A stretch of DNA of 64,000 nt from Cheilinus undulatus (Eukaryota > Chordata > Actinopteri > Labriformes > Labridae), in assembly GCF_018320785.1 (NCBI RefSeq), contig NC_054878.1, forward strand, positions 43,871,023-43,935,022, written 5' to 3'. Each line of letters starts with the position of its first letter. The stretch's first letter is position 1. Shown piece by piece: positions 1,450-53,500 of the stretch. Made by a program: the position numbers and the translations under genes. The notes under the pieces were generated by a model that saw only the letters and a program-made list of their open reading frames with translations, did not search any database and had not been told where the DNA came from.

Positions 1450-3440
1450 TTCAAAGGTTCAAATTGCAACATTGTTGCTCTTTCCTATGATTTCGTTCGC
1501 ATTCACATTGCCCTTGGTTTAACTTACTCAACCATACCTCGTTGGCACTGTTGTCATGAACCAGGAGTGGCGAAGAAGAAAAGGAGACCCCCAGCCCTCT
1601 GTTCGGAGCATCAGTCTGCAGAGTAAAAGGGAGAGAGAAGTTAGGTATGTAGAGAAATGGCTCCCCAGAGAGGGCCTGCTTAATCCTCTCAAACGTTAGC
1701 TGGCACTGCTCCATCCACTGGACCGGATCTGAGGCACTCTTTCGGGTAAGGTCAGTAAGGGGGCTGGCCAGGTCCACAAAGTTTTGAATGAAACACTGGT
1801 AGTAACCTGCCAGCCCCAAAAACCGCCTCACCTCTTTTTGGATTTGGGCAGGCTGCAATCACTGCTGTCTTGTCTACCTGTGGACGCACTTGCCCACGGC
1901 CCACGCGGTGACCCAGATACCGTACCTCCCTCCGTCCAACTGCACACTTCTTCAGGTCGGGGATTAGCCTGGCCTGTCTCAGAGACTCCAGTGCTGCGGC
2001 CACCTGCTGCACATGCTTAGACCAGCTTCCACTGTGGATGACGACATTATCCAAGTAGGCAGCAGCATGTAGATGCAGCGCCTTGTCCGTGAGACGCTGA
2101 AATGTGGCCGGGGCACCGAACAACCTGAACGGAAGTGTGACAAATGGGTACAAACCGTACAGAGTGGAGGAGGCCGTTTGTTTCCTTGGACTCTGGAGAC
2201 AAGCGTGTCTGCCAGTAACCCTTGGTCAAATCCGATCCAAGAGTTGGTCAACCCAGGGCATTTGGATAAGCATCAAATTGTGACACATCATTCACCCTGT
2301 GGTAGTCTACACAGAAACGTATGGATCCTTCTTTCTTAACAACAAGAACAATGGGGCTACACCAGGCACTGTGAGACTCTTCTTTTACTCTCATCTCCAG
2401 CATTGCTTTCAATTCCAGCTGAAAAGTTTTTCTTTTGTGTTCAGGCAGTCTGTAAGTTCGTGAAAAACTGTCATGCATGGTTTGGTCTCAATGTGGTGTT
2501 GTATGAGGTTTGTGTGTCCTAGCAAGTGTGAGAACATGTTAGTAAAACGCTGCTGCAACCTGGCAACGTCTGTTTTCTGGTACTGTGAGAGATGGTCATC
2601 ACAAAGGAGCGGGGTAGGCTCGGTGAAATTTGGTAGCCTACCTCCGGCCCCAGCTCATCCCTTTCTTTCATCACAGTCACCAGAGAAACAGACTCCGCCT
2701 CTCTCTATGCTTTGAGGAGGTTGAGGTGGTAAATCTGTGTTGCACAACCCCTATCAGAACGCACAACCTCACAGTCAACATCACCCACTCGTTGTGTAAC
2801 CGCAAAGGGTCCTTGCCACTTGGCGAGAAATTGTGAGCTGGATGAAGGAAGTAATACAAGCACTTTATCTCCCGGTGAAAACTGTCTCAGCCTCGTCCCT
2901 CTATTGTACAGGTGCTGTTGACGCACTTGGGCCCTGAGCAAATTCTCCTGTGATAGCTGCCAGAGTGAAAGGAGTTTATCTCTCAGGTCCAGGACATACT
3001 GAATTTCATTTTTGCTTGGGCTTGGACCTTCCTCCCAGTTTTCTTTGACCAGTTTCAAAACCCCCTGTGGTTTTTCCACCAAACAGCAGTTCAAAGGGAG
3101 AAAATCCCATGGAGGCCTGGGGAACCTCCCGCACTGCAAACAACAGAGGGTCTAGCCATTAATCCCAATTACTATCATTGTGAATGAACTTACGGATCAT
3201 AGACTTCAAAAGTCTTATTCAGGCGTTCCACAAGCCCGTCAGTTTGTGAGAGACAAGAACCAACACAAGAAAGAAAGAAACATAAGAGAATTTTAAAAAG
3301 TGAAGAGGGTGAGAATACTTTCTCAATGACCTGTAAATACAGACAACTACAGAGACAGTGTAGCAGGAATTGTGCATTACTTTGGTATTTCAGTGGGCAA
3401 AAATCACAAGCCGAACATGTAGATTTTTGTTGGGACACAG
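1450..3440 (-). mobile_element. Broken Gypsy (Ty3) LTR-retroelement fossil, Gmr1-like order
   Basis: Fossil pol remnant of a Ty3/Gypsy element on the minus strand. Reading in the minus direction, an integrase C-terminal part lies at about 3240-2705 (motif QTDGLVERLNKTF and the domain ending YHLNLLK). Reverse transcriptase follows at about 2480-1850 (SAWCSPIVLVVKKEG, LPFRLFGAPATFQRL, AAYLDN). A connection to RNase H follows at about 1860-1450 (FLGLAGYY, LQTDA). Integrase before RT is the order known for the Gmr1-like group of deuterostome Gypsy elements. No LTRs or gag part were recognised. It is clearly broken, with several breaks, and looks old. Confidence 0.8.
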
Positions 3441-5753: not shown

Positions 5754-8700
5754 TTAATCTTGATCTGGAAGTCGATGCAGTTCAATGGAAGCAGCACCAA
5801 ATGCTTCATCATTTTCATCGTTGGCTTCAATGACATCCTCATGCATCTGTGAAATACAACACAACACATGAGATTCAAAACAACAAGAGTCAACAGAGCA
5901 AACTCTGCAGAGTCCATCGTCTCAGAGGTTTCATCAGTCAGAAGAAATGTCACACATCGTAGGAGTTAGTTTAAACTCACGCTGGTTTCTTTACGCCGTG
6001 GTTTGATGTTACCTGGAAATAAACAGCAGCATTAATGTTTTGCATATGATTAGTTTGAACTATTTCTGCCACATTGATGGTGTTTATTTCCTCACCTCTG
6101 AGGGCGAAGACCAAAACAGTGCTCACGATCATCAAAACAAGAGCTGAAATACGCAGAACCAGCATGATGGAGCTCAGAGGAGACCAGTCTGTTGAAGTTT
6201 TATGAGAAAAAGAAACATTCATAAGTGAATAATTGTAACTGAACATGTAAGGATATCTGTTAGTTAAGAAGGCTCTGATTAAATTATTAACCCTGGCATT
6301 CTGGTCACCACAGTGGCAGCTCTTTAGAAAACATCTTCTACCCTACACTTCTATCTGTCTTGTCATCTGTTTTGTTCCACAGATCTTGTTGAAGCATAAA
6401 TAATGGTCCTACCTGTGAAGACAGGTGTGTAGTCGGCCTGTACCTCCACATTGTTCTCCTCATCAACAACCTGGCAGGTGAATGTCTTGTTGTGTCCGCT
6501 CTGACGAGTCACAGTCAGGTCAGAGAAACAGCCTTCATCTCTGAAAGTCTCTGTAACACCGTCAGTAATCTCAGCTCCTGTCTCATTCACCCAGAGGAGA
6601 CGGTATGGTGGACAAAGATGAAGATCTCTGAATCTGAACAGAGAACACTCTAACTGGAGTTCATTGTTGCTCGTTGGATCAGAGTCTGTCGGTTTTGGAG
6701 AAACTGAAGGAAAAAGATCAAAATCTAAGGTTAAAAATAGTTGACATCTGAATTTAGGTGACTTCCATACATGACTCTGACAAGTCTCATCAACAACAAA
6801 GGTTCTTTGTAGCATAACAACCAGGACTGAAGTAGGACTAAGATCTGGTAATGAATGCTGATTTAGAAAGTGACCATTAGATAGAAGAGGAAGGTTAAGC
6901 CCACATATCAGATATCTGCTGGCTACACTGGAAGTCTAAAGTCTTGTCTGTCAGATGATAACTGATGTTTCTGAGGTTGAGCGCTGTGCAATACTTTAAA
7001 CTGATGATAATGAAATGAGACTTACTTAAAAACAGACTGAGATACACTCTGATGCCGTAACGATCATCATAATTACGGTGACACGTGTAGAGACCAACAT
7101 CCTCATCAGTGACACGTTTGATGACCAAAGAACAGTCGGAGTCCAAACTCAGCCGACCAGCTCGGAGTGACCTGGGATTAACCTTTCCTTCGTTGGCCTC
7201 AGTAAAAGCCTCTGATGAAGCTCTGCTATAAAACCAGGACATGTCAGAGCATGGGAGAGGTCCAGAGGGGGACGGAGTACCACAGGGCAGGGTGACGTCT
7301 TGTTCAGGTAGGGAGAAGTGATAGAAGTCTGTTTGACTGCTGCGTACTGGAAAGAAAGAGAGAAGAGGCTGAAAACATCAGGGGCTGAGCTCCATTTGAG
7401 TCAGAAATGATTCTGAAATATAAATCAAGAGAGGAAAATCACAAACATTTAATCCTAACATTGAAGAGCTTTAACTCTTAGGAGTCAAAGAGCCACTGTC
7501 AGGAAAAACACTCCTGCATCACTGAAGTCTACAAGTTTGTTGTAGATTTTCATAAGTGGGTCATGTTGAGTCTCCCTCCTTACCTGGACCCTTGATGCTG
7601 TCACACAGGTTGTCAGTGAGACTGGTGAAGATGTAACGCAGATCATCAAAGTCACTGACGTAGTACACGTGAGTGTCATGTGGGTCAGAGGCGATGGACT
7701 TCAAATAATTCACATGAGCACCATCCACACCTGAGAGAAAACTGTGGTTGTACGTTGAGAAAGAAGAATTTTGACGACCAAATTCTAACATACAAATGAA
7801 CAAACTGTTTAAAGTAAAGTTTTCCCAATATCTCATTATTAACCAAAGATCTATTTACAATAGAACATACACAACACAAGCATTTGTGAAGATTTCTCTT
7901 GTGTTCAGTAAAGTCCACACTGTGCAGTTTCAGAGAAGCTCTGTGGTTCTTCTAGAACCTTCTGTTTCACCATGTGGAGGCTGTAATCCTGTCAGCTGAA
8001 ATACGTCAGTTTAACTTTGAACTCATGATGGTGAAGTGAAGACCAACAGCCTGTGAGTCATGCTGCCACCTCCACCGGCCACCTGAGACTTTTTCACCAG
8101 GAACTTCACTCCAAAACACTTAATTTTTCCAGTTTACCATTTGAAGTGCTTATCATCTATAAGCAAGTACCTTTTAGTTATAGGAACTTCTCACCAGGAA
8201 CATAATGGCTCCTGTACCCCATTCTAGGTGTTTTTCACCCAAAAGTGAAAGGAACTTTCAGTTACAGTAATTTCTCTCCAGGAATGTAATGGTTCCTCTG
8301 ACCCCATTTTAGGGTGTTATCATTCAAGAGTTTCCCTTTATTTATTTGTCTTTTTGTAAATCACTTTGTGCTACATTGTTTTGTTTGAAAAATGCTAAAC
8401 ACAGTTTTATTGATTGATTTTCAAGTCATTATTTTTGTTACCTTAAGTATGCTTCTGACATGTTACAAAATTTTCAAACCTTGTTATATCTCTGAATTCT
8501 CTTAACTATGATGACAAACACTCAGTAAAAATTTCACCGATGGTGTACAGCTCAGTGCCGTTATCCCTCAGATTTTGTGACGGCATGTCAACGCCATCGA
8601 AGGAGTCTCCATCTGTAAAGAGGATGCCAATTTTTCGTGAGTCCTCTCGCATCCCAACCTCAGGTTTGAAGTTTTTCTCAGGATGTGTGGCAGAGCCTGT

Positions 8701-11700
8701 CCTGTAAGAGAGGAGGTCAGAGGTTATTCAGTCGCTCAACTCTATTCTCTTCTTTTCATTATTCTTTTAATAACAATACAAACCAACTGCTATGAACAAC
8801 CAACTAAGAAGAGTAAGAATCAGACACAAAAGAAAGGTTAGTTTCAGTTAGCTTCTTCTCTCTGTTCCCCACCTCTCTGTACTATTTTTTTTGAAAGCCC
8901 CAGGATGTGAGAGCAGAGAGGGTCTTAAAATGAATGAATGAATGAATGAATGAAACCTTTATTACCCCGGAGGGAGTTTGTCTTGCACAGAGAGCATCTA
9001 AAAACACAAACTACAAAAGACATCAGCAACCACACAGGACAACATATAATAACATGAACAGCAAGTCATAATAAAAATAAAAATACTTGTAATAAATAAT
9101 GATGTACAGCATTAAGCATTGTATGATACTATGTGAAACAGATCAAATGTCGGGTCTTTAAAGTGCAGAGTGTCAAGTTCACATTGTGTGCTCAGAGTTT
9201 ATTTAACAGCTGGATGCTCCGTGGTATAAAGGATGCCTCTTTTAGTTCCCATTCTGGGCATCCTGTACCTGCGTCCTGAGTTTAAGAGTTCAAATTCAGA
9301 CCAGAGGGGATGCTGTGAGTCTGCTGTGATCTTGTTGGCCAGAGTCAGTGTGTGTCACTCTGTCAAAGAAGTGATGCACTACATCTGTTCTCCTGCTATC
9401 TTTGTGCCTATTTTAACTATCTTGTCCAGTTTGCTTTTGTTTTGTAGGGACAATGCTCCTCCCCAGCACTGGATACAAAAAATTAAGACACTTTCAATAA
9501 AGCTTTGATAAAACAATTTCAACATGGTGCGGTCCACATCAAAGCTCCTCAGTTTCCTTAAAAAATACAGACGCTGTTGGGCCTTTGCAAATCTTGAATT
9601 AGTGTTAGCATTCCATGTCAGTTTGTTGTCAATTATTGTACCCAGATACTTGTATTCTTGGACAGATTTGATGGCTGAATTATTAATGACCACAGGGGTA
9701 AATGATTGATTGGTTTTTCTAAAATTGATTATCATTTCTTTAGCCTTCTTCATGTTTAAAATCAATGAGCTATCAATACACCCATTGTAGAAGTTATTTA
9801 TTTATTTATTCAGCTCTGTAGCTACTCTCAGTATTTTTATCATTTAAAAGTCCAATCAGAGCAACATCATCAGCAGACTTGATTAATGTGCAACTGTGTC
9901 CTGATCACTGATGCAGTCACTGGTGTAAAGTGGGAACAAAAGAGGTGAAAGGACACAACCCTGTGGCACCCCAGTGCAAGTGCCGATTAAAGTTGACTGT
10001 TGTCCATTAATTTTTACAAAGTGTTGCCTTTTTGTTAGGAAACTAAATATCCACCTGATGAGGGTGTGATTAACTCCCATACCACACAGCTTTACAGCCA
10101 GGAGATCTACTCTGATTGTATTGAAGGCAGAAGAGAAATCAGCAAAAAGAACTTGCACATATGATGACTGAGTTTCCAGATGTTTATAAATTTGGTTAAG
10201 AAGTGTGACTGTTGTGTCCTCAACGCCTCTCTTCGCTCTGTATGCAAATTGAAAAGGATCCATGTGACATTTAGGTTAGTTTCACATTTAAGATGAGATA
10301 AAACAACATGTTCAAAGCACTTCATAATACTTCATAACAACTGATGTTAAAGCAGTAGGTCTAAAATCATTTAATTCCTCGGTACTTGCCTTTTTTGGTA
10401 CTGGTATAATTTTAGCTACTTTCTATGATGATGGTATTAATTGTAAATTTAATGAAGCCTGGAAAATTTTTGTGAACACAGGTCCTAATTGTACACAGCA
10501 TTTCTTAAGTGTGGTACCATCCAGCCCAACACGGCCAATTGATTCCCTCGCATTTATCTTAGAAAAGGCATTTTGCACTTCTTCAGCTGTTACTGTAATA
10601 GGGCTGCCACCGACTCTCCAGTCGGCTCTGGCCTCCAATTGAGAGTCACCAGTCTCAAAGTGAGCATAAAAAGGATTTAATTCATTTGCATAATCTGCTG
10701 TATATGCAGAGCTGACCTGCTGAGAGTTTAGGCCAAACATTGTTTTAATACCACACCAGGCCTCCCTACCTTTATTGTCTGTGAGTAGCTGCTCAACTTT
10801 AGCTTTGTAGTCCCTTTTTGCTTTGTTAATTTTTATTTGGATATCTCTCTGAATTATTTTTCCAGCACATCTATCATTTACTTTAAAAGCATGTTCCTTC
10901 CTTATTAAAAGCTGTTTCATTTCATTTGTTACCCAGGGCTTGGTGTTGGAAAATGTCTTTGTTTGTTTGCTGGGTATGACACTATCTACACAAAAATTAA
11001 TATAAGACTTTACCACATCTGTGTGTTCATTAATGTCTGTGCTTTCAAACACCTCCCAGTTTGTACAATCAAAGCATCCCTGTAAGGCAAGCTCACTGTT
11101 TTCATCCCACACACATCCCACAATTACAGATACAAATACACACCTCCCTGAACGTGGGCAACCAGGGCGCCCTGCTGGACCTAGACATGATAGGGGAGCT
11201 TGACAGCAAGGATCTGGTGGTGGGACTTCCCAGTTACACAAACAATAAACACAAATTTGTGTACTGTAGACTGTGCACAGGAGTTTGTCTGAAAGATCTG
11301 ACTTCTACATTTTTTCTGTGGTATTTAAACATGTACTGATAATGATTTTTACTAAAATCAGATCAGAATTTAAAAATCTGGTATCCTGACAACACTAGAT
11401 TGATCATGCGATCCCACAGTGCTCTTCTTACCTGTGTTGTTGTGGCCTCCTATTGGCTGCAGCTCATTAACATCATTCAGCAGGGATTTCTTGGTTCTGT
11501 GGGCGTTCAGGTGCCACTGGGTCTTTGGGTCATCACTGTACTGAGTCAGACCTGCAGAAAAGACACAGTGAGGGGTAAAAACCACAGGAACTAAAAAGTG
11601 ACTCTGATGCACCAACATAGAGAAAACCTGTTTCAGCCATAGCACAGTTTTCAAAACCAGTTATAAAACAGTCAAAACTATGGATGAAGAAGGTGAAGAT

Positions 11701-14700
11701 CATGTGATCTCATCTGTTCTACGGCTAAAACAGGAATGTTGAGACCAGTTTGGTCTGACTAAGGTGAAAGTTTTACCGATCTGAATTCTGTCAGGGCCGA
11801 TGTCAAACATTCCAACTATGTCAGCGATGAAGCAGCGGAGGGTTATGAAGTTTTCGGGGTAGATACTCCCGGAATCGTCCACCAGCAGCACGATGTCGGC
11901 TTTAGCAGTTGTCTTACACCGAGTTCCTGTAGAGATGATGATATGGAGTGAGAAACACAGCTGCTACACCAAAGACTGCCAACTTGAGCTTACCCATGGT
12001 TATTAAGATGGCGACTCAGAAACATTCACCAGTCTGAGGAAGAACACGTTGGTTCCAAACATCACTTCTTGCAAATAAATGCTTGAAAAACATGAGCTTC
12101 CTTCCACAACACTTAGTTTTCTCTCTGTTTTCTTTAGCACCCATTTACTGATGTGCATGTCTTATTTCATTTTTTAGCTTATACTTTTTTTTAATACTTT
12201 ATTGCAATGATTAAAAAAATCACTGTAGCAAACAGGTGTCATTGAGATTACACTGCATTTTTAAACAAATTCATTAATTAAAAAAGAAAAAAACAAACAG
12301 ACCCACACGCATACAAAAAGAAAAAGAAAGGGAAAAGTATATAAATATAAAAAAAAAAAGAAAAAGAAAGAGGAAGAGGTTAAAAGAAAACTTAAAAGGA
12401 AATGGGGCTAGGTAAAGAGGGTAAGTGCCTTTTTATTACATATCTTTTGGTACATTTATTTAATTGTACAGTCTACCGAGTCTATTTTCAGGATAAATCT
12501 TATTCATTTTTTGCAAAGTATCTCTAAATTTTAATGTTATTTTTTCAACCTCTAAGGTATGTTCTATTGTTTTGAACCAATTATTTATTTTTGGTGGTTT
12601 GTTGTTTCCATGTCCTTGTCACCTGCTTCATAGCTGTAACACACAGAACATTAAAGAGAGGGATATCAGCTTTGTTCATTGTCAGTGGTGAATTAACGCC
12701 CAAAAAGTTTGCAGGTTTCAGATTTCCATTAAGTTCAAAATGATTAATCAATGCCTTCTCAACCTCTTTCCAAAATTTGCTCACAATAGGGCACATAAAA
12801 ATCATATGTATATAATTTGCTTTTTGTTCTCCACACCCTCTCCAGCAATTGGTACCTTGGGCGGAGTACTTCCCATACTGGCAGGGTGTAATAAAGTACC
12901 TCATGCTCACCTTCCATGCAAATTCTCTCCAATATTTAGAAGAGGTTATCTTTGAATTTCTAAGCAGGCACTTTTTCCACTCTTCTGCCTTAGCTTATAC
13001 TGTAGAAACTCTTGCAACACTCTGTGCTAACTCTTTATCATAACATCAGAGATAAGAAGAGCATCTCTCTGGAGTCTGAACTGAGCCACTGCAGCTCAAA
13101 TCAAGCCATCATCTGAAATGCACACATGATGGATGAGACAGGAGCGTTAACAGGATGAAGTTTCTGAATAAAAAAAATAGATGTAATTATTTCCAAGAAG
13201 CAGAAAAAAAGGCTCTTGTTTTTCCTGCAGGACGTGTGGCACATTATGAACTAGCACATGACAAATTCAAGGCTTTACGAGCTAGAAAAGCATTTCTGTG
13301 TTCATACGTGAAAGGAAATTGCATAAACACCCTACAATGGTGATGACAAGGAAGATTTAGTTTTGCATCACTCTTGTGCACCTGTGTATGATATAAAAAC
13401 AATGTCAGAGAGGAAACAAAAGCTTATAAATGAGCATGAATGAGCCTTTAGGCCTGCTAAGACTACTTGATATTTTTTTTATCATTTACAACGGTTCCAT
13501 GTCAGACTGTTTGGGGTCAATGCTTTGAAATACAGAAAAAGTGGCTGTGAGTTTCAAACTCAGGGTGGTCTCCCCCAGAGTCACTCTAAAGACAACTCAA
13601 CAGTCACCGACTTACTCTGTTTTCTAACATGAGTGCTTTGCTCACCAATGTGGCTGCTTGTAAGTGATCAAAAACAGGGTTAGAAGCAACAGGTGAGTTT
13701 ATTACCAACATGTAGATAAATGTCAGACTTGTAGTGACAGTTTAGGTGATTAATGCTCTATGTGGTTCTGCTGTCTGTGTTGAGGCGGCTCGTTACACAG
13801 GCAGACTACGGGTTGCAGTGAAAACAGGACATGGAGTTTCTCTAAAGCAGACGTTCTCTCAGTGAGAAAGCAGAAGGATTACAGGATGGCAGTAAAAGTG
13901 TGGTGGGGAGTTTCATTAGTTTAATCGTTCTATTGAGGATTGATTAGATTTGACTGAAAATAGCATAGACAGGGGATTTTTTAAAGTGTACAGTGGGTCT
14001 GACAACCATGTTTGGGTCAATGTTGAACTTTCACCTTTTTCTAATTTGATTTATCATGTAATCTTACCTGTTTGGAAAGGTGTGTAGTCACCCTGTATAT
14101 CCTTATTGTTCTCCTCGTTAGCAGACTGGCAGCTGAATTTCCCATTGTAGACTCTCTGACGTGCCACATTCAGGTCAGAGAAACAGTCTGCATCTCTGGA
14201 ACTCTCTGTAACACCGTCAGTAATCACAGCTCCTGTCTCATTCACCCAGCGGAGACTGTTTGGTTGACAGGAACTCAAACCTCTGTATCTCAGCAGAGAA
14301 CACTCTAATCTGACTTCAATGGGGCTCCATGGATCAGAGCGAGTCAGTGTCGGAAAGACTGAAAGAAAAAGATCAAAATTTAGTTGGAAAAGCTCTGATG
14401 TCTGCTGGAATGTTAACGACACCCAAAGACACCCAAGTTTCTGCTTTTTCTTTTTATTACCAAACAATCGTGACTAGAGTGGTATAAGGTCTGATAATAG
14501 TACTGGTGATAAACCAAAACCAGCAGATGGAAGGTTGGACACAATGCAATCTTTTGTTCCAAAAAAATCCGTTATGATAATGACGGAAATGAGACTTACC
14601 TGTAAAAACACTGAGATACACATTTACTTCAGAACAATCAGAACCACCCCGTCGACACGTGTAGAGACCAACATCCTCAGCAGTGACACGTTTAATGACC

Positions 14701-16509
14701 AAAGAACAGTTGGAGTTCAAACTCAGCCGGTCAGCTCGGGACGACGTCTGCTTCACCTCCCCACTGCTTGCCTCCATAACGGTCTCTGACGGATCTCTGT
14801 TATAAAGCCATGAAATATCAGAGCACTGCAGAGGTCCAGAGGATGACGGAGAGCCACAGGGCAGGGTGGCGTTTTGTTCAGGTTGGAAGATGCGATAAAT
14901 CTTCTCTTGACTGTTGACCACTGGAAAGACACAAAGAGAAGAAGAAGTGTCAGAAACCAAGCTCACATCAAACTTCACAGAATCTCTCTGGACATTAACA
15001 TCTGATCTCTGAAGAGCTGACAAAGATGAAAATAAATCTACAGATTTGGTGGATAATGTCTTTACCCAATAATTCCACATACTCTGCTGTGTTCATGCGC
15101 ACTTTAGTTTTGCTCCAACTGATGGCGGGACTCTGACTGATTTTTAACCTGTGGCTCATGCAACCTGTGTTGTATTAGGGGTGAAAATTATAACCCCAAT
15201 TCCATAAAAGTTGGGACGCTGTGTACAATGTAAGTAAGTCACTGATAGTCAAATCTCATAAACCCATATTTTAATCACAATGACACTGCTGCTCATCCCA
15301 CAAATGCATGTTCCTTACAAATGTGGCAAAAAAGGGAAATAAACAGGCTTTCCAACAGTATAGTATTTATAGCCAAGCGGCATTGCTACAACAAAGAAAC
15401 AATCAATTAAACACCAATTTCCTTACTTATTGTGCAAAGTGAAGATAATTTAGGTCAGAAGATTTTGGCTTCTTCTCAGATATTTAAATCTCTGGAAATT
15501 ATCTGGAAATTCTGAAGGATAGGTTATGAAGAAATTTGAGGTCAGGGCCAACAGAAAGGGGCAAAAGCATGCTTTTATCCCAGTTCATCCTAAACCCTGA
15601 GAGCTGTCTAAATTTCTGTATTAAATCAAGAAGAGGTGAGAAGGACGTCTTTACATGGGACAGAGTCAATAATCACACCACTACAGACCTATGGTGGAGA
15701 CAAATGAGCTGAATGATATACCAGAAATCTTGGGACATGTAATAGAGATTTATAGCAATAATACAATGGAAATAAGTCGAAACTGCAAGAGGTTTTAAAG
15801 CAAGAGTGAGAGATTAAAACTCTAGAGCATTTAATCCAACAACTAGGACTAAAACTAAATTTAAAAAAGCTGACAAAATGAACCTTGCCAGGTTTTAAAA
15901 CACTATGCATCCATCCATTTTCTACACCACTTATCCCGTTCAGGTTCACAGGGAGCTGGAGCCTATCCCAGGTGTCACTGGGTGAGAGCTGGGGTACATC
16001 CTGGACTGGACGGGTCACCAGTCAGTAACAGAGCTGACATGCAGAGACAAACAACCAGGCACTCTCACACTCACACCTATGACCAATTTAGAGTCACTAA
16101 TTAACCTAACAAGCATGTGATTGGTGGTGGTAGGAAGCCAGAGTGCCAGAGAGAACAGACACATTCACGGGAAGAGAAACAGGAACCTTCATGCTGTGAA
16201 GTGACAGCACTAACCCTTCACCGCTCTGCAGCCCGTCAATACACTAATCCTATAAACATGTAAGAGCTTGGACAGCAGAAGAACAAACCTTTAGTTCTGC
16301 TCAGATTAGACCTCAGACATGACTGACCACTAACTCCTTAGCTGCTAGCTCAGCTGATTTTACATGTTTATATTAAACACAATCATCAGCATACATTTGC
16401 ACATCTATACTATGACACACTTTTAACACATGTCAAGATTAATAATAGAAAAAGAGTAGTTACCGCCAAACTGGAGCACAGAAATGAAGATCAACTCCAG
16501 CAGAGCCAT
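5754..16509 (-). CDS. Ig-Ig-VWA-Ig-Ig single-pass membrane receptor (one-base frame break in one exon)
   Basis: Twelve exons, 5' to 3': 16509-16464, 14920-14600, 14358-14068, 11926-11777, 11551-11432, 8701-8538, 7730-7584, 7346-7026, 6703-6413, 6188-6096, 6012-5981, 5846-5754. All introns are phase 1 except the last (phase 0). The product would be about 689 residues: signal peptide (1-15, MALLELIFISVLQFG), Ig V-like (about 16-122), Ig (123-219), VWA (220-413), Ig V-like (414-520), Ig (521-617), membrane segment (about 620-646) and a 41-residue tail without ITIM or ITAM. The VWA resembles collagen XIV/XII (KADIVLLVDDSGS, FDIGPDRIQIG, LCDSIKGPG), and the MIDAS residues DxSxS, T and D are present. 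Exon 8701-8538 is 164 nt where 165 is expected. An Arg lies in or at the membrane helix. Its role is unknown; immune or adhesion is an inference. An alternative is two adjacent genes. Confidence 0.72.
8931..11110 (-). mobile_element. L2-like LINE, 5'-truncated, in the receptor's VWA intron
   Basis: On the minus strand, pieces of one LINE ORF appear in order. The linker before RT is at about 11110-10430 (LQGCFDCTNWEVFES, KPWVTNEMKQLL). RT follows at 10263-9880 (DPFQFAYRAKRGVEDT, LFADFSSAFNTI, GVPQGCVLSPLLF), with the catalytic box read as SADD in another frame. The C-terminal part is at 9765-9379 (EYKYLGTIIDNKLTW, MLKLFYQSFIESVL). The element ends at a (TGAA)n run at 8931-8955, a normal L2/CR1 tail. 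The endonuclease is missing and the frame is broken. It sits between receptor exons 11551-11432 and 8701-8538. Confidence 0.85.
12200..13040 (-). mobile_element. L1/Tx1-like LINE 3' fragment
   Basis: The minus-strand translation at 12910-12581 contains CWRGCGEQKANYIHMIFMCP followed by SKFWKEV. This is the C-terminal Cys/His motif after RT in L1-type LINEs. A degenerate A-rich stretch lies at 12260-12390. It is inserted in the receptor intron between the second Ig exon and the first VWA exon. Only the tail of ORF2 remains. Confidence 0.65.
15180..15430. repeat. Dispersed fish DNA-transposon-like repeat
   Basis: Contains aaccccaattccataaaagt followed by tgggacgctgtgta. This motif is familiar from a very common non-autonomous repeat of teleost genomes. 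The right boundary was not determined. It lies in the first large intron of the receptor gene. Confidence 0.5.
15895..16240. repeat. Common teleost interspersed repeat (ccatccattttct family)
   Basis: Carries the hallmark order of a widespread teleost repeat: ccatccattttctacaccac, cagggagctggagcctatcc, ggtgtcactgggtgagagct, then tagagtcactaattaaccta. It is non-coding and lies in the receptor's first intron. I do not know its exact class. Confidence 0.6.
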
Positions 16510-17527: not shown

Positions 17528-18707
17528 CACTGCCTGGCCAACAAAAAAGTCACCACCAAAAAAAGGTCACACACTAATATTTCATTGGACCGCCTTTAGC
17601 TTTGATTACAGCACGCATTCGCTGTGGCATTGTTTCAATAAGCTTCTGCAATGTCACAAGATTTATTTCCATCCAGTGTTGCATTAATTTTTCACCAAGA
17701 TCTTGTATTGATGATCGGAGAGTCTGACCACTGCACAAAGCCTTCTCCAGCACGTTCCAAAGATTTTCAATGGGGTTAAGGTCTGGACTCTGTGGTGGCC
17801 AATCCATGTGTGAAAATGATGTCTCATGCTCCCTGAACCACTCTTTCACAATTTGAGTCCGATGAATCCTGGCATTGTCATCTTGGAATATGCCCGTGCC
17901 ATTAGGGAAGAAAAAATCCATTGATGGAATAACCTGGTCATTCAGTATATTCAGGTAGTCAGCTGACCTCATAGCACTGCCCCCACAGGCTTGTACAGTA
18001 GGCACTAGGCATGATGGGTGCATCACTTCACCTGCCTCTCTTCTTACCCTGATGCGCCCATCACTCTGGAACAGGGTAAATCTGGACTCATCAGACCACA
18101 TGACCTTCTTCCATTCCTCCAGAGTCCAATCTTTTTGCTCCCTAGCAAACTGAAGCCTTTTTTTCCAGTTAGCCTTACTGATTAGTAGTTTTCTTAAGGC
18201 TACACAGCTGTTCAGTCCCAATCCCTTGAGTTCCCTTCGCATTGTGCGTGTGGAAATGCTCTTACTTTCACTGTTAAACATACCCCTGAGTTCTACTGTT
18301 GTTTTTCTTCGATTTGATCGCATTATGATCATTCAAGATTGTTTCTGACCACATTTCTTACTGGAAGTTGATGGTTCCCCACTATCCTTCCAGTTTCTAA
18401 TAATGCGTTGGACAGTTCTTAACCCAATTTTAGTAGTTTCTGCAATCTCCTTAGATGTTTTCTCTGCTTGATGCATGCCAATGATTTGACCCTTCTTAAA
18501 CAGACTAACATCTTTTCCACGACCACAGGATGTGTCTTTCAACACGGTTGTTTAAGAAATGAGAAGTTATTCATTGCATCAGCTAGGGTTAAATAATTTG
18601 TTGCCAGCTGAAAGATAATCGCCCATGCAGTAATTATCCAATATGAGGCTCGTACCTTTGCTTAGTTAAATCCAGGTGGCGACTTTTTTTTTTTTGGCTA
18701 GGCAGTG
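17528..18707 (-). mobile_element. Tc1/mariner transposon with DD36E transposase, nearly whole
   Basis: A 1180-bp element bounded by TA on both sides (17526-17527 and 18708-18709). Its inverted ends start CACTGCCTGGCCAA (left) and CACTGCCTAGCCAA (right, inverted). The minus-strand transposase runs 18545-17574. The N-terminal helix-turn-helix part includes KTSKEIAETTKIGLRTVQRI. The catalytic part is [32 protein letters not shown] count 36 residues between the second Asp and the Glu, which points to the DD36E (Incomer-like) group rather than DD34E Tc1. One in-frame TGA at 18335-18333 separates the two parts; otherwise about 323 codons are open. Confidence 0.88.
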
Positions 18708-19945: not shown

Positions 19946-22900
19946 TCAGGTGGAGAAGAAGCTGCTGCCATCGATGCGTCGCCGGCGAGTTTGCTGCTGC
20001 TCGAAGAACTGACGGATATCCTCAGGTGTTACCACCTATCAGCCAATCAGAGGGAAATGATTTTATTATCAGAAAACCAGAAAAGAATGAGGGCCACTGT
20101 CAAAAAAATAGAAAATAAAAATTCTGACTTTATTCTCACAATTCAGATTTATTTGGAATTGAATATAACTTTAAGCTGAGAATTAAAACTATTTTGAGGA
20201 ATCTGAGGAAAAGTTTCATCTAAAACAAATCTTTTCAGTTAAAATTCTGACTTTCATCAACCTCATAACCTCTTTAACCTGAAACTCTTTCTTTCCCGGT
20301 CCAAACTCAACCTTTTTTCTCCGAATTGGAAATTGTATCTCAAAAGAAATAATAAATAAATAAATAAACAATAATGGCCCTAATCATCTATTGTACAGGT
20401 ACATGTCATTCAATGTTATCAGCCAACCAGAGAGCAGGAACGTATCATTAGGTATACCTCACCTTTCCTTCAGATGCAAATCTTTGCAGGTAGTCCTTCA
20501 GCTCTGATTTCATGTCATTATATCCTAGAAAATAAAAGAAAAAACTCAGAAATGCACCAGAAGTATGATGCAGAACTCCTAGTTTTGTAGGGACATGTGT
20601 TGTAGTCAAAAGAAAATGTAAAACAGCCATAGGAAAATGTGTATTATTCTGGGAAAGTTTAGCAGTTGTATAAATGTGTACTACTCATAAGAATATGTGT
20701 AGTAGTCTTAAGAGCATGTTCTAAGCTCATGAGAACATGTGTAATGCTCATGAGAACGTGTGTAATACTCATAAGAACATTTGTAATACTCATGGGCACA
20801 TGTGTAATACTGATAGGAGCATACATCACACTCACACTCTGGTACATGTGTTACACACATAGGGAAATGTGTAATACTCATAGGAACATGTGTCATACTT
20901 TTAAGAACAGGCTTAATACTCATGGAACATGCGTAATACCCATAGGAACATGTGTTACACTCATAGGAACATATGTGATACTCATAGGCACATGTGTAAT
21001 ACTCAAAGAAACATGCATCATACTCATGGAAACATGCGTAATACTCAGGAACATGTGTTCTACTCATTGGAACATGTTTGTAGAACAGGTTTAATACTAC
21101 TTGGAAATGTTTTATATGTAATAAAATGTGTAGTAGTCCTTTAAACATATGACATGCATCAGAACATGTGTGGTTGTCATATAAACATGTGAGTGGTCAT
21201 CAAAACATTCAAAACTCGTATGAACATGGGTTGTAGTCATAGGAGCATGTGTAATTCTCATGGGAACTGTGAAATAGTCATAAGGAAATTTGAAATACTT
21301 ATGGGAACATGTAAAGTTGTCAAAGGAACATGTGAAGTAGTCATACGAACAGGTATATTAGTCATAGGAACATGTGTAGTAGGCACAGGGGCATGCAGGT
21401 ACATGTGCCATAGTTGGAGGAACTATTGTACAAGTCATAGAAAAATGTGCAATGCCTATGGGAACATGTGAACTAGTCATAGCAACATGTTTAATGCTCA
21501 TGGGACCATATGTAGTGGTCATGGGAACATGTGCAATTTCATAAGAAAATGTATTATTTAGAGGAACATGTGTAATAATCACGGGAACGTGTGTAGTAGT
21601 CATAGAAATGTATGTTATACTCATAGGAACATGTGCAATTTCATAAGAAAATGTATTATTTAGAGGACACGTGTAATACTCAGGGGAACATGTGTAGTAC
21701 TCAGAAACATATGTTATACTCATAGGAACATGTGTAATACTCAGGGGAACATGTGTAGTAGTCATTGGAATATATGCTATACTCAGGAACATGTGTAGTA
21801 CTCATGGGAGCCTGGGCAGAAAATGTAACTGTGCTTTAATTCCAGTTATAATTTTCATACCATGGATGATCTCCAGCTGTTGAACTCTGTTCAGGTTGTC
21901 AAGCGCTGACATCAGAGGGTCATGACCTCTTGATTTTTGTTCGTTTTTCTTCCCATCATTCTCATAGGCGAGCACCGTGTCTGACTCATCATACAGGAAG
22001 GATAAGCCTCCTTCAGTCAGTTGCTCCTGACAACACAAACACTCGTTAGTTTAATGAGAAAATATCAACAGAGCACGCTCAGAAAAGCACATTCACAGAG
22101 TAGAAGTAGGGAATCAATATGACATCACAGCTACATGACCAGGTGAGCACTACTGAAGCCAATAGAGGCAGCCAGGTGAGTGTTACCTTGCAGGTGTTGC
22201 AGGTGCAAAGTTTGGTGCGCCACCCGGAAGGCCAGAAAACCGCTCCTGACTGGACTCTTTTCTGATCAGTCGCTTGCCACTCTTTCAGTCTGCAGCTTGG
22301 CTCTGCCTCTGTGCGGCTCCGTTTACGGCTGGGCTCGTTGACATCATCATCCTGGAAGGTAAAAGTTTATAATAAGTCACTGATCAATACAAACTTGTGT
22401 TAATGGATCAATACAGTTAACATGTAAAGCAAAATGATTATAAGCCCTCTGTTTTGCTGCTGATGAAATAAAATACAACCAACAGTAAAAGCAACCAAAT
22501 CACATTAGATCTTAGAACATAGAACTCCACAGCAGAAGAATCCAAATGAAAACTCGAAAACCCAAGCAAAGGGTTAGCAACTGGTTGTGTACTTGGCTCT
22601 GAGGCATTTTCTCCCACTTGGACCATGAAGGCAGGTCTTTGTGAGAACAGACATCATTGCAATGGTATCGTATATCAAGTACCAAGGAAGGCTAAAGGCT
22701 CCACTTCTGCTCTTGTGGGCTTAGTCCAAGGGTGTGGTTCTGAGGCCTTTTTATCTCACAGGACCCCAGAATGCATTAGCAGATCTGCTGCCATGAGGAC
22801 AACCCCACCCAGGAAAGAAGCACTTGCACCCAAAGATAGCGAGTCAGACTTTGGCACCACGGAGAACACCTGCTGCTCTGCTGCCCTGAGTCTCTCTAGG

Positions 22901-47559: not shown

Positions 47560-50500
47560 TCACGAGTCCTCATCTGTTACGTCTATGTGCATCAGAAAGC
47601 GAATCAGAGTGCCAGGCAGCGGAAGCTTCTTCAGACGACGCTGCCCAACCAACTGCACGATACAAAGACGACAGAGCTGAAGTAATGGCCGAGGAGGTGC
47701 TGCAATGGATCAAAACAAACAGCAACACATATTTAAATAAAACCAGTGACATAGTCCAGTAACACAAGAGACAATCCAGTTACAACGCACTGACACAAGA
47801 CACAAACCAGTAACATGAGTAAAAACCCAGTAACAGCACAACCACATAAGACACTAACTAGTAACATGAGAACCAAACCAGTGATATGACACAAACCAGA
47901 AACACCAAAGTGACATATGACACAAACCAGTAAAATGACAGATAAACCAGTAACACCAAAGTGACTTATGACACAAACCAGAAACATGAGAGTTAAGCCA
48001 GGAAGACCACACTGGCATGAGACAAAAACAAGTAACACCACAGTGACATAAAACACATCAGTAGCACAAGACACAAACCGGTAACACCACAGTGACATAA
48101 GAGACAAACAGGTAACACCACAGTGACATAAAACACATATCAGTAACATAAGACACAAACCAGTAACACCACAGTGACATAAGAAACAAACCAGTAACAC
48201 CACAGTGACATAAAACACATCAGTAGCACAAGAGACAAACCAGTAGCACCACAGTGATATAAGACACAAACCAGTAACACCACAGTGACAAAAAACACAT
48301 ATCAGTAACACAAGAGATGAACGGTTAACACCACTGAGACATGAGACAAAAACAAGTAACACAAGAGACGAACCAGTAACACCACAGTGGCATAAAACGC
48401 ATATCAGTGACACAAGAGACAAACTAATTACACCACCGTAAAATAAGACACAAACCAGTGATGTAAGGGGCAAACTAGTGACACCACAGTGACATAAGAC
48501 ACAAACCAGCGACTAAAGAGACAAAACAGTTGAACCACAGCGATATAAGACACAAACCAGTAACATAAGACACAAACCAGTAACACGGTTATGGTTTTCA
48601 TGGCATTTTCATATCAACATGCAAACAGGCTTGGTGTGAGTTTTTACCTGCTTTGTCTTTGATGACGCTCCACTCAGAGTAACTGTCCAGGTGTTCCATC
48701 AGTCGAGAGCAGAGGGTTACATTACCAACGTAGTCCAACAGGACATCAATGATTGGCCCCGCCCACCGACAGATACTAGGGACTGAGATCATCTCACAGA
48801 ACTGCCAATGAGAAAGTCAATAAAAACAGGGTAATCCATCACTAGAAGATCATTTTAGTGAAACTGTCCATGTTTCTTTGACACAGACTTTTTTGTTTTT
48901 CAAACCGTAATACAACTCGTCTCACCTGAACACCTGCGCTCTGCTGCCTCTGTTCCACACTTCTGTCCCCGTAGATCAGCTCATCCCTCTGTGATCTGGA
49001 GGTTTTGATTGGTGGGTGAGGTTTGTGTCCATAGGTACAGTCAAAGCAGGAGAGGGCATGGCCTCCATGGTCCAGCAGGTACTTGAACATTGGCAGGTAC
49101 TTCATGCTGAACATGTAGACAGCGGGGAACGTGGTGGGGTGTGTGGGGATGGAGGCGTTGATCTCTGCTCCATGCTCTACCAGAAGGGTCAAGGTTTGGA
49201 TGCAGCCCATCCTCGCTGCCACCATCAGAGGCCTGAACACATCCAGGTTTGGGTTGGCGCCAGCCTTTAGAAGCATGAGCACCGCATCGATGTTGCTGTT
49301 GATAACTGAGAAGTAAAGCGCCGTGCTGCGTCGGTCCTCGTACAACCTTGACCGTTCCTCAGACAGCTGAAGGTTCACATCGAAACCAGCCTCAATCAAA
49401 ATCTCCAGGACTTCATCACGATTTCGTTCTGCGGCAAGATGGAGTGGGCTGATGCCAGTCCGCCGGATTCTGGCCTTGCTGGTGGGCGGGATCAACATGC
49501 TGACAATGCTGTGAACAGGAAATATCACAGTAATCAGACCACACTCAAAGACCCTTAAATAATAGATAGTCAGAGAGACAGGGCCATCAGGATCTTTATG
49601 ATGTTTTACTACAAATAAACAGATATTGTTCAATTTTGTTGGACAACACTCTATACAAACATCACATTCATCATAAACTTAGCACAAAAACTAATGAAAT
49701 TTGTGTTTGGTAGCTTATTTGTTGTAACAATGCTTCTTGCCAATAAATCTAATTCCTTGGAAAGCCTGTTATTTCCTTTTTAAATGGTGCCATATTTTAA
49801 GGAAAATTTGTGGGATGAGCAGCAGAGCTGAGTATGTGGGTTGCATCCATGAAAAACTTCCTCAGTGTGATGTAATTATTATTACATAAATGCATAAACT
49901 GTTTTACATATACTAAACATATACTAGCATACCAACAATGGAGGGTTACAGGGATTAGGGTTAGGCCAGGCCCACATGGGCCTCCTAAAAGATCCCATAC
50001 TTTCCAAAGTAAGAAGGCAAACATCTTACGTTTCACTTCCTCTCTGAGCAGCAATGTGCAGAGGTAATAGTCCTCTCTTTCCTGGTTTGTTGGCATCAGC
50101 GTTCTGAGAAAGGAGGAGCTCAATGACGTTTTCATGACCATTTTTAGCAGCTTCATACAACGCAGTGGCTCCATCAGGAGCCTGACTGTTAATGTCAGCA
50201 CCTGCAGGGAGACAGAGGGGTCAGAGTCAGGGTTCTGCCTTTTACTGTAAAGACAACATTCATGACTCTCCACAGGTAAGGGTAGGGGTACAGGAGGGCA
50301 TACACTGTGTCCCACAGGTTGGGATCAGCAGAAAAAGTCAGAATGCTTTAATTCAAAAGCCAGTTTATCCCCCCTGTATCTCAATTACCGCCCTCAGCCT
50401 GTCCGGCATAGAATGCACTAAGTTCTTTAGAACAGAAGGCTCAATGTTGCCTCACGCCTGCACAGCCCTCAAATTGAGCTGCTTCAGTGGGGGTGGGTTG

Positions 50501-53500
50501 TAGAAGACCCAACTGTTCAAGACACCCAGCAGTTCTCAATTGGGTTGAGGTCCTGGGAGTTGGGTGGCCATAACTCTTTGTGCAGAAAGCCAGGAAGCTG
50601 CTCAGAACACCACTGCTGAGTTGTACACGCAGTCTGTGCAGGGGCACCCTCTTACACAATGACCATTTCCGCACGCCTGTTGAACATCTTCCAAGCAGTG
50701 AAGGGGCCCGATTTCTTCTGTCTGGTGAGTATGGGAAGTAGCACTGGCTGGAGAATGTTCTTGGCATAATATTTAGCTTTGATGGTGGTTCCCTGGGGTA
50801 CAACATGCAATTCAGACAGCCCTGAAGATGGCATCTCCCCCCAGACCATGCAATAGGTGCTGAACTTTGGTGGCACTGTTTTTTCGATCTTCAGTGTAGA
50901 TGCAGCTGTTTTGGCTGACAAGAGTTGGAAATAAGTAGAGTGGGCACTCATCAGAGAAAACCCAGTTTTCCCAGTCTCTTAGGGTCACTGTGGCACACTT
51001 CTCTGCAAAAGCCTTTAGCAGTTTGGTAAGGCAAGGAATCTGCTGTCTTCTGTATGCTCTCAGACCTAGTTTCTTAGTCAGATAACAATGGATGGTACTC
51101 TTAGAGACTGCTTCCCCAAGATTCTTCAGTCTTTGAATCTGCAGCAGGATTGGTGTCTATTTCCTTTGGCCTTTCGGATGAGGTACTTGTTCCTCAAACC
51201 TAGGACAGAGGGGCAACATGCACAGGGATTGTCTTCAAGGGATTCATGACTCTGGTGTCTTTGTCACCACTTCTTCACCGATCGTATATTTTTGCCAAGG
51301 TCCTGAGCTACTGCAAGTTTTCCCTGTCCTGCGCAAGGTGATTGCTTGAGCACAGACCTGAGGCTCTTAAAGAGCAGCCTGTCCAGGTTTTTGTTTGGCC
51401 ATCATGGCAGCACTACCAGAAAGGTTCTCTCAGTGACATGCTTCTTGGTCAGCTAAGAGGTGTATAGGCCTCTCAAAACAGATGAACTGATTAAACAACC
51501 TCACAACACCTGGCTGACCAGGTGCAACCCATTCAGAGACAGACAGACAACAATGTTGCCCATAAAGGTGCATGAACTTTTGGGAGATGGTGTAGAATGA
51601 TTTTCTTATTTGCAAACTTTTAACACTTAGCTAACAGTGGCTGAGCTGTCCATCCACCCTCATAGAGCTTCCTTTTGAGGACACTGCAGAGGTTCTCAAT
51701 AGGGTTGAGGTCAGGGGATGATGGTGGCAACACCATGATTTTTTTTCCCTTTATGCCCATAGCAGCCAAGGCCTCAGTGAGGTTTGTTGTGCATGGTTGT
51801 CTTGCATGAAAATACAAGGCACAGTTCTTCTTTTTAGACCACGGCAGGAAATGCGCAGTTAGGAACATATTTAGCTGAGGTCATTTTGACAGCTACCAAC
51901 TCACTTCCTATGATTCCAGCCTCAAACATACTCCACTACCTCCTTGCTGGCTTTGCAGCCTTGTTGGGACATGGTAGCCAGCCACCAACCCTCCAGAACT
52001 CCCTCCATCTGGACCGTCCAGTGTAGCACAGCATTCATCAATGACTAAAACTGTTTGAAAATAACTCTTCATATATATTTCTTATTCTACTGCAATTGTT
52101 TCTCCTTGTGGGCATTGGATAAGGGTGGCTGAAATACAGCTTTACGCATATCAGCAAGCCTCTGGTGGATCCTGCATCCAGAGGTCCTGGGACTTCAGAG
52201 GCACCAGCAGCTTCAAATACCTGTCTGTCCAGTGTTTTCATACTGCTTAAAATGTGGAACAAACTTCTTAAGCAGTTTACCTTTAATTAGGCTCACCTGG
52301 CAAACTAATGACCAAACCCGTGTGAGATTGATGTCAGTGATGGAAACTAACAAGAAAAGCAGCACAATTGAAAACTTTAATTGAGAAATTAAAAATCAAT
52401 CAGAATCATTTTGCATAATAATTCGGAACACAGTGTGAGTTACTTTGTATTTTATGCACTTTGATTTCTGAATAATTACCATGTCTGAGAAGGAAGCGGA
52501 GCGTTGCGAGCTGCCCACCCTGAGCCGCAGTGAACAGTGGCGTGATGCCGAACGAGTTGGTTAGGTTGTGTTTGGCTCCGGCCTTCACCAACATCTCACA
52601 GATCTCCACATTGTTCCGGCCCACGGCCTCCTGGAGGGCGGTCCAACCATGAATACAGTGAACGTTGACTGCTGCATTATAGTTCAATAAGGCTGCAACC
52701 ATGGCGGGACTGTCCTTCTCACAAGCTGCGGATTACAAGACGAAGAGTTTCGTTATCACTCTCAATAGCTTCAAATTTACCGCCATGTGTCTCAGTCTTA
52801 CCTTTGTAAAGAGGAGTCTCTCGGTCATTATTTGTAGCATCAACATCTGCTCCATTTTCCAGCAGCAACTCAACACATGCAAGATGATTTCTGCCTGCAG
52901 CGATAATCAGTGCTGTCTCGCCGCGCTCTGTCCGCTTGTTGATCATCCCTGGCTGAGCTGAGAACACAGACAGAGCAGCTCTTTGGAATCAGTCATGATG
53001 TGTGTGCATGAGTCTATGTGTGTGGGTACCTGATAGAAGCACTCTCAGACACTTGGCCTGGCCAAACCACGCCGCCTGGTGAATGGCAAGCCAGCCAGGT
53101 TTACTGGGCAGCATTAGATTTGTTCCAGAACGCATCACCAACACCCTTACTTGTGAAGCGTCACCAACACGAATTGCTTTGAACAGAGGCTCCTCCTCCC
53201 TGAAAGATTAGACTTAGTTACATTACCCATCAGCCACTGCATCTCTTTTTTCACCCAGTAACATGCAACCAGAAGCTGCTACAGGTGTTTCCAGGTAAGA
53301 AGCTTTCAAAACTCTACTCACTCTACAGGCTCCGGACACATGTGGACCAAACTGCCATCATGTTTGCGATATGCCACCATCTTCTTTCCTGAGCCCGTCA
53401 TGAAGGTACTGATTATCCCATCAAACGTTTTCCTGCCCGGTAACAAGGACAACGGCCAGTCAGGACAAAGAGAGGTGCACAGCAGCAAATCAGAGCATAG

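What the first reader, a model, noticed from the sequence alone, without database searches (positions are those of the whole stretch)
5754..16509. A receptor with a collagen-type VWA domain sandwiched between two Ig pairs
Seen: twelve exons on one strand whose phases join cleanly. In particular the second Ig exon (ends 14068, one base over) joins the first VWA exon (starts 11926, two bases short) to read TPFQTGTRCKTTAKADIVLL. Known: VWA of this form (KADIVLLVDxSxS, FDIGPDRIQIG, LCDSIKGPG) belongs to FACIT collagens such as XII and XIV. The Ig pairs look like teleost-specific immune-type receptors. Inference: a matrix-ligand VWA was captured by an Ig membrane receptor. I know no named protein with this order.
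Basis: partly seen in the sequence, partly recalled or inferred. Interest (0 to 1): 0.88.

Follow-up and report, generated by a model that had tools for sequence, protein, structure and literature searches.

The report
Fish Ig receptors with captured collagen domain
A fish genome carries a tandem family of predicted cell-surface immunoglobulin receptor genes that captured a binding domain from a collagen-type gene on the same chromosome, and it is this captured domain, more than the immunoglobulin parts, that has been driven to vary from copy to copy.

Summary
The twelve exons are present: signal, Ig-V, Ig-C, four VWA exons, Ig-V, Ig-C, membrane, two tail exons. The order recurs: in the parts read of a tandem array (C14:43.60-43.94 Mb, both strands) 9 of 16 delimited units have V-C before and V after VWA exons; U3, U5 and U9 read open from start to stop. 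The VWA was copied as genomic DNA, intron included, from a FACIT (collagen XII-like) gene 2.7 Mb away. VWA exons W1, W2 and W4 diverge 2.5-4.7 times more between copies than adjoining introns; Ig exons do not. The excess lies in loops that, by recalled topology, ring the metal site: omega 2.3-2.6 against 0.9 elsewhere. I read a germline-diversified, perhaps activating, receptor family. Corrections: this window's copy lacks one base in VWA exon 3, is open only through an acceptor 5 nt downstream, and has N for T at the metal site. Against one-gene reading: an ATG 70 nt before the VWA reads in frame into it in 3 of 10 copies. Transcripts and other species could not be tested.

The parts
16464..16509 (-). 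exon 1, start and signal peptide (MALLELIFISVLQFG; called by eye)
   Evidence: SP-exon DNA occurs 11 times in the parts read, 10 before a V1 and 1 before the V2-only gene U10
14600..14920 (-). exon 2, Ig V-type domain (V1)
   Evidence: V-set E 3.5e-9
14068..14358 (-). exon 3, second Ig-type domain of the pair (C1)
   Evidence: no Pfam match on this stretch, Ig type by eye
11927..11981 (-). intron DNA homologous to the FACIT gene L033, captured with the VWA
   Evidence: blastn L033:2119-2326 to C14:43883003-43882795, 78.9% over flank plus exon W1; flank alone above 200 of 200 shuffles
11777..11926 (-). exon 4, VWA part 1 (W1; metal-site motif DDSGS)
11432..11551 (-). exon 5, VWA part 2 (W2; metal-site T position is N here)
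8538..8701 (-). exon 6, VWA part 3 (W3); one base short against paralogues; in frame only from 8696
7584..7730 (-). exon 7, VWA part 4 (W4; ends NLCDSIKGPG)
7026..7346 (-). exon 8, Ig V-type domain (V2)
   Evidence: V-set E 8.4e-8
6413..6703 (-). exon 9, second Ig-type domain of the second pair (C2)
   Evidence: Ig type by eye
6096..6188 (-). exon 10, transmembrane exon with Arg inside the hydrophobic stretch
   Evidence: no TM predictor was run
5980..6011 (-). exon 11, basic juxtamembrane tail (GNIKPRRKETS)
5754..5846 (-). exon 12, acidic tail and stop, no tyrosine in this copy

Best explanation
A tandem family of type I membrane receptors. A two-Ig receptor gene (signal, V, C, membrane exon, tail), or two tandem ones, acquired by genomic exon shuffling the four-exon VWA module of a FACIT, collagen XII-like gene about 2.7 Mb away on the same contig. 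The fused unit (Ig-Ig-VWA-Ig-Ig-TM) was amplified to at least 16 full or partial copies. The VWA binds ligand through its metal site (MIDAS), as integrin I domains do; the rim of that site is diversified between copies while the Ig pairs serve as a more constant stalk. The basic residue in the membrane span suggests pairing with an ITAM adaptor (FcR-gamma or DAP12 type) and an activating signal. Shown by sequence: order, recurrence, shared intron DNA with the donor, excess divergence of VWA exons, mostly kept metal-site residues. Inferred: transcription as one mRNA, binding by the VWA, nature of ligands, adaptor pairing, immune role.
For: V1-C1-VWA-V2 in one orientation in 9 of 16 delimited units: U1, U2, U3, U4 (V2 broken), U5, U9, U11 (no third VWA exon), U12 (C2 beyond the fetched stretch), window. 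U3 and U9 (689 aa) and U5 (1503 aa) read from ATG to stop without internal stop. V1s of most recent copies are 88-93% like the window's V1 (U7 and U15 52%, U8 a partial 77%), V2s 92-97%, V1 to V2 60-65%. None of 11 SP-exon and 9 TM-exon DNA hits lies between C1 and VWA or VWA and V2. The VWA-V2 intron is 236-240 nt in 6 of 8 copies measured (1.8 and 2.4 kb in U1 and U2), without AATAAA or a 19-residue hydrophobic stretch in those 6. L033's intron before W1 matches 7 of 7 copies tested above all 200 shuffles each; L032's does not (beaten or matched by 22-149 of 200); the match runs 307 nt into the intron in U2 and 28-54 nt in 13 others. W2 14.7% against 4.4% intron (55 of 55 pairs), W4 14.2 against 3.0 (15 of 15), W1 10.9 against 4.4 (51 of 55); V2 2.5 against 3.0 (6 of 15), V1 3.1 against 8.7 (0 of 28), C1 7.5 against 8.7 (9 of 28). 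Codon likelihood, top-face loops against the rest: seven chosen copies 2.58 (2dlnL 12.97 against omega 1) and 0.92 (0.30); nine recent unframeshifted copies chosen without regard to the metal site 2.26 (13.61) and 0.90 (0.39), 2.69 (17.44) without metal-site codons. Basic residue in the membrane span in 9 of 9 array TM exons: Arg in 8, His in U5.
Against: No transcripts. An ATG 70 nt before W1, opening a signal-like stretch, reads in frame and unspliced into W1 in U4, U9 and U12 (another ATG at 139 nt in U1): 4 of 10 copies tested have some such start; in U9 an ATG 34 nt before V2 is in frame too, 1 of 8. Top-face residues were assigned from recalled VWA topology after the alignment had been seen. 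The seven 'intact' copies were picked knowing their metal sites, so invariance of the five residues in them is partly by choice; over 12 VWAs the counts are D 12, S 12, S 11, T 10, D 11. As whole exons W1 and W3 have dN/dS 0.59 and 0.67. W3 was not paired with its introns. Pairs are not independent, damaged copies are in the exon-intron comparison, conversion can inflate omega, and VWA synonymous divergence (0.086-0.169) also exceeds intron divergence. Other intron flanks fit L033 less well: W1 downstream and W4 upstream in no copy. The tree joins L033 with L032 (97/94), and the branch uniting the array VWAs has only 90/76. Many copies are partial or broken.
Confidence: 0.65

Rival explanations
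1. One reading: a receptor for one extracellular-matrix ligand, the VWA keeping its FACIT function.
For: FACIT origin of the VWA; metal-site residues complete in 9 of 12 array VWAs.
Against: VWA exons W1, W2, W4 diverge 2.5-4.7 times more than adjoining introns and the presumed metal-site face has omega above 1, unexpected for one conserved ligand.
Confidence: 0.12
2. Two or more neighbouring genes or alternative starts: an Ig-Ig product without membrane exon, and a VWA-Ig-Ig-TM product starting just before the VWA.
For: The ATG 70 nt before W1 (MGKLESAVCGVPAVFLT..) reads in frame into W1 in U4, U9 and U12; U1 has another in-frame ATG. AATAAA strings lie in the C1-VWA intron of 9 of 10 copies... 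of those under 3 kb, 8 of 9 (all but U11).
Against: That start is out of frame or stopped in U2, U3, U5, U11, U14 and the window, 6 of 10, while the acceptor of W1 is kept in the 14 W1 exons listed; no signal or membrane exon copy lies inside a unit; the VWA-V2 intron is about 237 nt in 6 of 8 copies; junctions are phase 1.
Confidence: 0.13
3. A decaying array, mostly pseudogenes, with the VWA drifting neutrally.
For: Frameshift and T-to-N in the window copy; U4, U6, U7, U8, U11 damaged or partial; framework omega 0.9.
Against: Neutral drift predicts exon divergence equal to intron divergence (one search finds more); three copies are open from start to stop; metal-site residues are mostly kept.
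Confidence: 0.1

Closest known systems
FACIT collagen VWA, collagen XII type (genes L033 and L032 of this genome)
   Same: VWA sequence (window exons to L033: W1 65, W2 62, W4 52%; W3 64% with the intact paralogue as query), four-exon borders, intron DNA with L033
   Different: collagens are secreted and carry FN3 and triple-helix domains (recalled; fn3 seen downstream in L033); here the VWA lies between Ig pairs of a membrane protein and is diversified
Teleost innate Ig receptor families (NITR, NILT, LITR, DICP, SITR; recalled, some in the listings)
   Same: germline multigene families of V-type Ig proteins, mostly membrane-bound
   Different: no VWA known to me in them; here V exons vary little and a VWA varies; no J-like FGxG motif and no ITIM in the window copy (by eye)
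Integrin alpha I domains
   Same: VWA fold with metal site in cell-surface proteins; phmmer E 7.3e-21 to integrin alpha-X, though collagen VI alpha-3 and a mussel thread matrix protein score better
   Different: no beta-propeller match; Ig frame; tandem array
GPVI / FcalphaRI-type activating receptors (recalled)
   Same: Ig receptor with Arg in the membrane span and a short tail
   Different: carries a VWA; adaptor pairing untested

Membership tests
VWA domain with MIDAS | DxSxS, T and D metal-site residues (positions recalled) | tested here: met
   9 of 12 array VWAs with all four exons carry D,S,S,T,D; U4 (DSNTG), U7 (T deleted) and the window copy (N for T) do not. The window copy itself fails at one position
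FACIT collagen | triple-helix and FN3 domains | tested here: not met
   exons beside the VWA are Ig-type, then TM; the domain is derived from a FACIT gene, the protein is not one
NITR | J-like FGxG motif and cytoplasmic ITIM (recalled definition) | tested here: not met
   window V exons end ..VNVYLSVFT and ..IRVYLSLFL; tail without tyrosine; by eye, window copy only
Type I Ig-superfamily membrane receptor | signal peptide, Ig domains, one membrane span | tested here: met
   V-set by Pfam; signal and membrane span by eye, no predictor run
Activating receptor using an ITAM adaptor | basic residue in the membrane span and adaptor association | not testable with these tools
   basic residue in 9 of 9 array TM exons; pairing needs experiment
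Integrin | beta-propeller alpha chain pairing with a beta chain | tested here: not met
   Pfam on the three parts of the window protein gave Ig and VWA, no propeller

The most novel reading that the evidence does not exclude
A germline-diversified recognition system in which the variable, selected contact surface is the metal-site face of a VWA domain taken from a collagen, with immunoglobulin domains reduced to a more constant scaffold: an integrin-like I domain used the way immune systems use V domains or LRRs.
Probability: 0.48. Interest if true: 0.93.

Novelty: new variant of a known kind. Interest (0 to 1): 0.85.

Why it matters
It is a domain capture caught with its pieces on one contig: the donor-type gene, the shared intron DNA, exons of a two-Ig relative without VWA, and amplified hybrids. 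If right, it makes directly testable whether a VWA metal site can serve as a variable recognition surface in innate immunity, and it names copies (U3, U5, U9) to express.

Tried and rejected
Other fish genomes: no collection on hand holds them, so no scan of viral, metagenome or prokaryote contigs was run. Retrocopy origin rejected: intron DNA is shared with the donor. L032 on C18 as direct donor rejected on the intron before W1, though the tree does not choose L033. Of 8 flanks compared with L033, the W1-upstream one matches 7 of 7 copies; W2 upstream and downstream, W3 and W4 downstream match some copies; W1 downstream and W4 upstream none; one stray match of L035 to U2 (1 of 200). Whether there was one capture or more is not settled (90/76). 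Single-exon VWAs on C8, C15, C18 and elsewhere were not taken as donors because they lack the exon borders. The number XII rests on recall of the human sequence; PDB matches of the L033 fn3 piece were best to fibronectin and tenascin, with collagen XX lower, and its splicing to the VWA was not checked. The first IQ-TREE run gave no omega and its omega=1 runs failed; one search found the cause and one search repeated it (omega=1 maximised over a grid of seven kappas, tree from the same codons). In one search the patterns missed the U3 and U9 signal exons and misread the U5 tail; one search reads all three copies through. Literature: 11 search calls, 9 answered; one search listed 10 of 24 papers; I saw listings and starts of abstracts only and opened no paper.
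Full report
OBSERVATION. The window is C14:43871023-43935022 of a 1.17 Gb genome, by its gene content a fish. All twelve exons exist on the minus strand between 16509 and 5754 with AG/GT borders; the joints from signal exon to juxtamembrane exon are phase 1 and the last joint reads as phase 0. One claim is too clean: the third VWA exon of this copy lacks a base that its nearest paralogue has, and an open frame needs a second acceptor 5 nt downstream. It also has N for the metal-site T. Pfam sees V-set and VWA; the second domain of each Ig pair is called Ig by eye only.

FAMILY. Genome searches with the VWA and Ig-V exons showed a cluster. I read C14:43601000-43810999, 43831000-43850999 and 43861023-43935022 (and the window); 43811000-43830999 and 43851000-43861022 were not read. 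There I delimited 16 units by position; a further W1-W2 pair near 43831 kb was left outside them. Nine have V1-C1 upstream and V2 downstream of VWA exons in one orientation: U1, U2, U3, U4 (V2 broken), U5, U9, U11 (third VWA exon missing), U12 (fetched stretch ends after V2) and the window copy. U3 and U9 (689 aa) and U5 (1503 aa) read from ATG to stop with no internal stop. The other seven: U10 is signal-V2-C2-TM-tail with no VWA; U6, U7, U8, U13, U14 and U15 lack parts. U5 has five V2-C2 pairs after its VWA. At L037, just outside the array, lie exons like signal, V, C, TM and tail with no VWA match above noise; C and TM are 4.4 kb apart, so one gene is likely but not shown.

ONE GENE OR MORE. 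None of 11 signal-exon and 9 membrane-exon DNA hits falls between C1 and VWA or between VWA and V2. The VWA-V2 intron is 236-240 nt in 6 of 8 copies measured (1.8 kb in U1, 2.4 kb in U2), and in those 6 holds no AATAAA and no 19-residue hydrophobic stretch. V1-type and V2-type domains keep their places. Against this, the C1-VWA intron (1.1-3.9 kb) holds AATAAA in 8 of the 9 copies scanned, and an ATG 70 nt before W1, opening a signal-like stretch, reads in frame and unspliced into W1 in U4, U9 and U12; U1 has another in-frame ATG at 139 nt; U2, U3, U5, U11, U14 and the window have none. In U9 an ATG 34 nt before V2 is also in frame, 1 of 8. So an alternative VWA-Ig-Ig-TM start is possible in some copies. 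RNA must decide.

DONOR. L033 (C14:46.59 Mb) and L032 (C18:29.65 Mb) have the same four VWA exons and end ..NSVKGP; L034 and L035 are FACIT-like and more distant. An fn3 piece lies 2.5 kb downstream of the L033 VWA (E 1.3e-7). I call the gene collagen XII-like from recall. The intron just before W1 in L033 matches 7 of 7 array copies tested beyond all 200 shuffles (z 7.8-17.8); for L032, L034 and L035 at least 22, 38 and 14 of 200 shuffles reach the score in every copy. By blastn U2 shares 307 nt of that intron and 13 other W1 copies 28-54 nt. W1-downstream and W4-upstream flanks show no match to L033; W2 flanks, W3 and W4 downstream do in some copies. So the VWA was copied as genomic DNA, most likely from the gene on the same contig. 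The protein tree instead joins L033 with L032 (97/94), puts U1's VWA on the FACIT side of a 96/90 branch, and unites the array VWAs at only 90/76.

SELECTION. Between recent copies (11 units, damaged ones included; fewer where an exon or intron was missing or an intron exceeded 900 nt), W1, W2 and W4 differ by 10.9, 14.7 and 14.2% against 4.4, 4.4 and 3.0% for adjoining introns; exon exceeds intron in 51 of 55, 55 of 55 and 15 of 15 pairs. V2 (2.5 against 3.0%, 6 of 15), V1 (3.1 against 8.7%, 0 of 28; U7 and U15 left out) and C1 (7.5 against 8.7%, 9 of 28) show no excess. W3 was not paired with introns. Pooled dN/dS by exon: W1 0.59, W2 1.51, W3 0.67, W4 2.05, V1 1.07, C1 1.03, V2 0.68, C2 2.87 on 5 synonymous changes, TM 0.90. 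I then marked 51 codons that, by recalled VWA topology, lie in loops on the metal-site face; I had seen the alignment, so this is not blind. In seven copies that I chose for whole VWAs, knowing their metal sites, diversity is 0.393 there against 0.153 elsewhere (1 of 192 circular shifts reaches the difference) and dN/dS 1.85 against 0.73; the five metal-site codons have no nonsynonymous difference, partly by that choice; with ten copies their dN/dS is 0.18. Codon likelihood, seven copies: omega 2.58 (2dlnL 12.97 against omega 1), 3.44 without metal-site codons (18.94), rest 0.92 (0.30); ten copies: 2.17 (14.38), 2.51 (18.33), 0.86 (0.95). Nine recent copies without frameshift, chosen without regard to the metal site: 2.26 (13.61), 2.69 (17.44), 0.90 (0.39). 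Over 12 VWAs the metal-site residues are D 12, S 12, S 11, T 10, D 11. Caveats: conversion, non-independence, and VWA synonymous divergence (0.086-0.169) itself above intron divergence.

FUNCTION. Inference: an integrin-I-like, metal-dependent binding head held in an Ig frame. The membrane exon has Arg in 8 of 9 array copies and His in U5; tails of the window copy, U3 and U9 lack tyrosine in the last 40 residues while U5 has one. By the known principle for FcR-gamma and DAP12 partners (recalled) this suggests an activating receptor. Diversification of the rim around a mostly kept metal site suggests many ligands, microbial or self.

KNOWN OR NEW. Nine answered literature searches listed no receptor with this order; I saw titles and abstract starts only, and four searches returned nothing. 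Predicted proteins in public databases could not be searched. As a kind it is an innate-type Ig receptor multigene family; the use of a captured VWA as the variable element is, to my knowledge, new.

Noticed in passing
C14:43682948-43712480 (loci L017-L020): Unit U5 carries five V2-C2 Ig pairs after its VWA, all open, before one membrane exon; 1503 aa reading.
   Followed up: partly
C14:43830616-43850685 (L030, L031): On the minus strand three VWA exon sets (the third without a fourth exon seen) follow one V1-C1 with no V2 found, facing plus-strand exons up to about 43829 kb: looks like an inversion junction.
   Followed up: no
C14 copies U4, U9, U12, about 70 nt before W1: An in-frame ATG with a signal-like stretch (MGKLESAVCGVPAVFLTP) directly before the VWA exon: possible alternative start.
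   Followed up: partly
window 16516-16464: An out-of-frame ATG 7 nt before the presumed start; present in U3, U4, U9 and the window copy, absent in U5, U10 and U12.
   Followed up: no
window 9883-10275 (open frames 9379-11304): Reverse transcriptase remnant (PF00078, E 1.2e-16; non-LTR type by eye) in the intron between VWA exons 2 and 3.
   Followed up: no
window 1752-2225 and 17574-18332, minus strand: Retroelement polymerase remnant (PF00078, E 8.5e-8) and a Tc-type transposase (PF01498, PF13358).
   Followed up: no
window 20659-21801, 47733-48512, 53413-53992: Open frames made of short peptide repeats (such as THVPMSIT), probably minisatellite DNA, by eye.
   Followed up: no
window 48842-49678, minus strand: Ankyrin-repeat exon(s) of a neighbouring gene (PF00023, E 3.7e-18).
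   Followed up: no
C14:42.39-43.89 Mb: 87 of the 90 V-domain matches fall here: a very large array of related V-type exons beside and including the VWA-bearing units.
   Followed up: no
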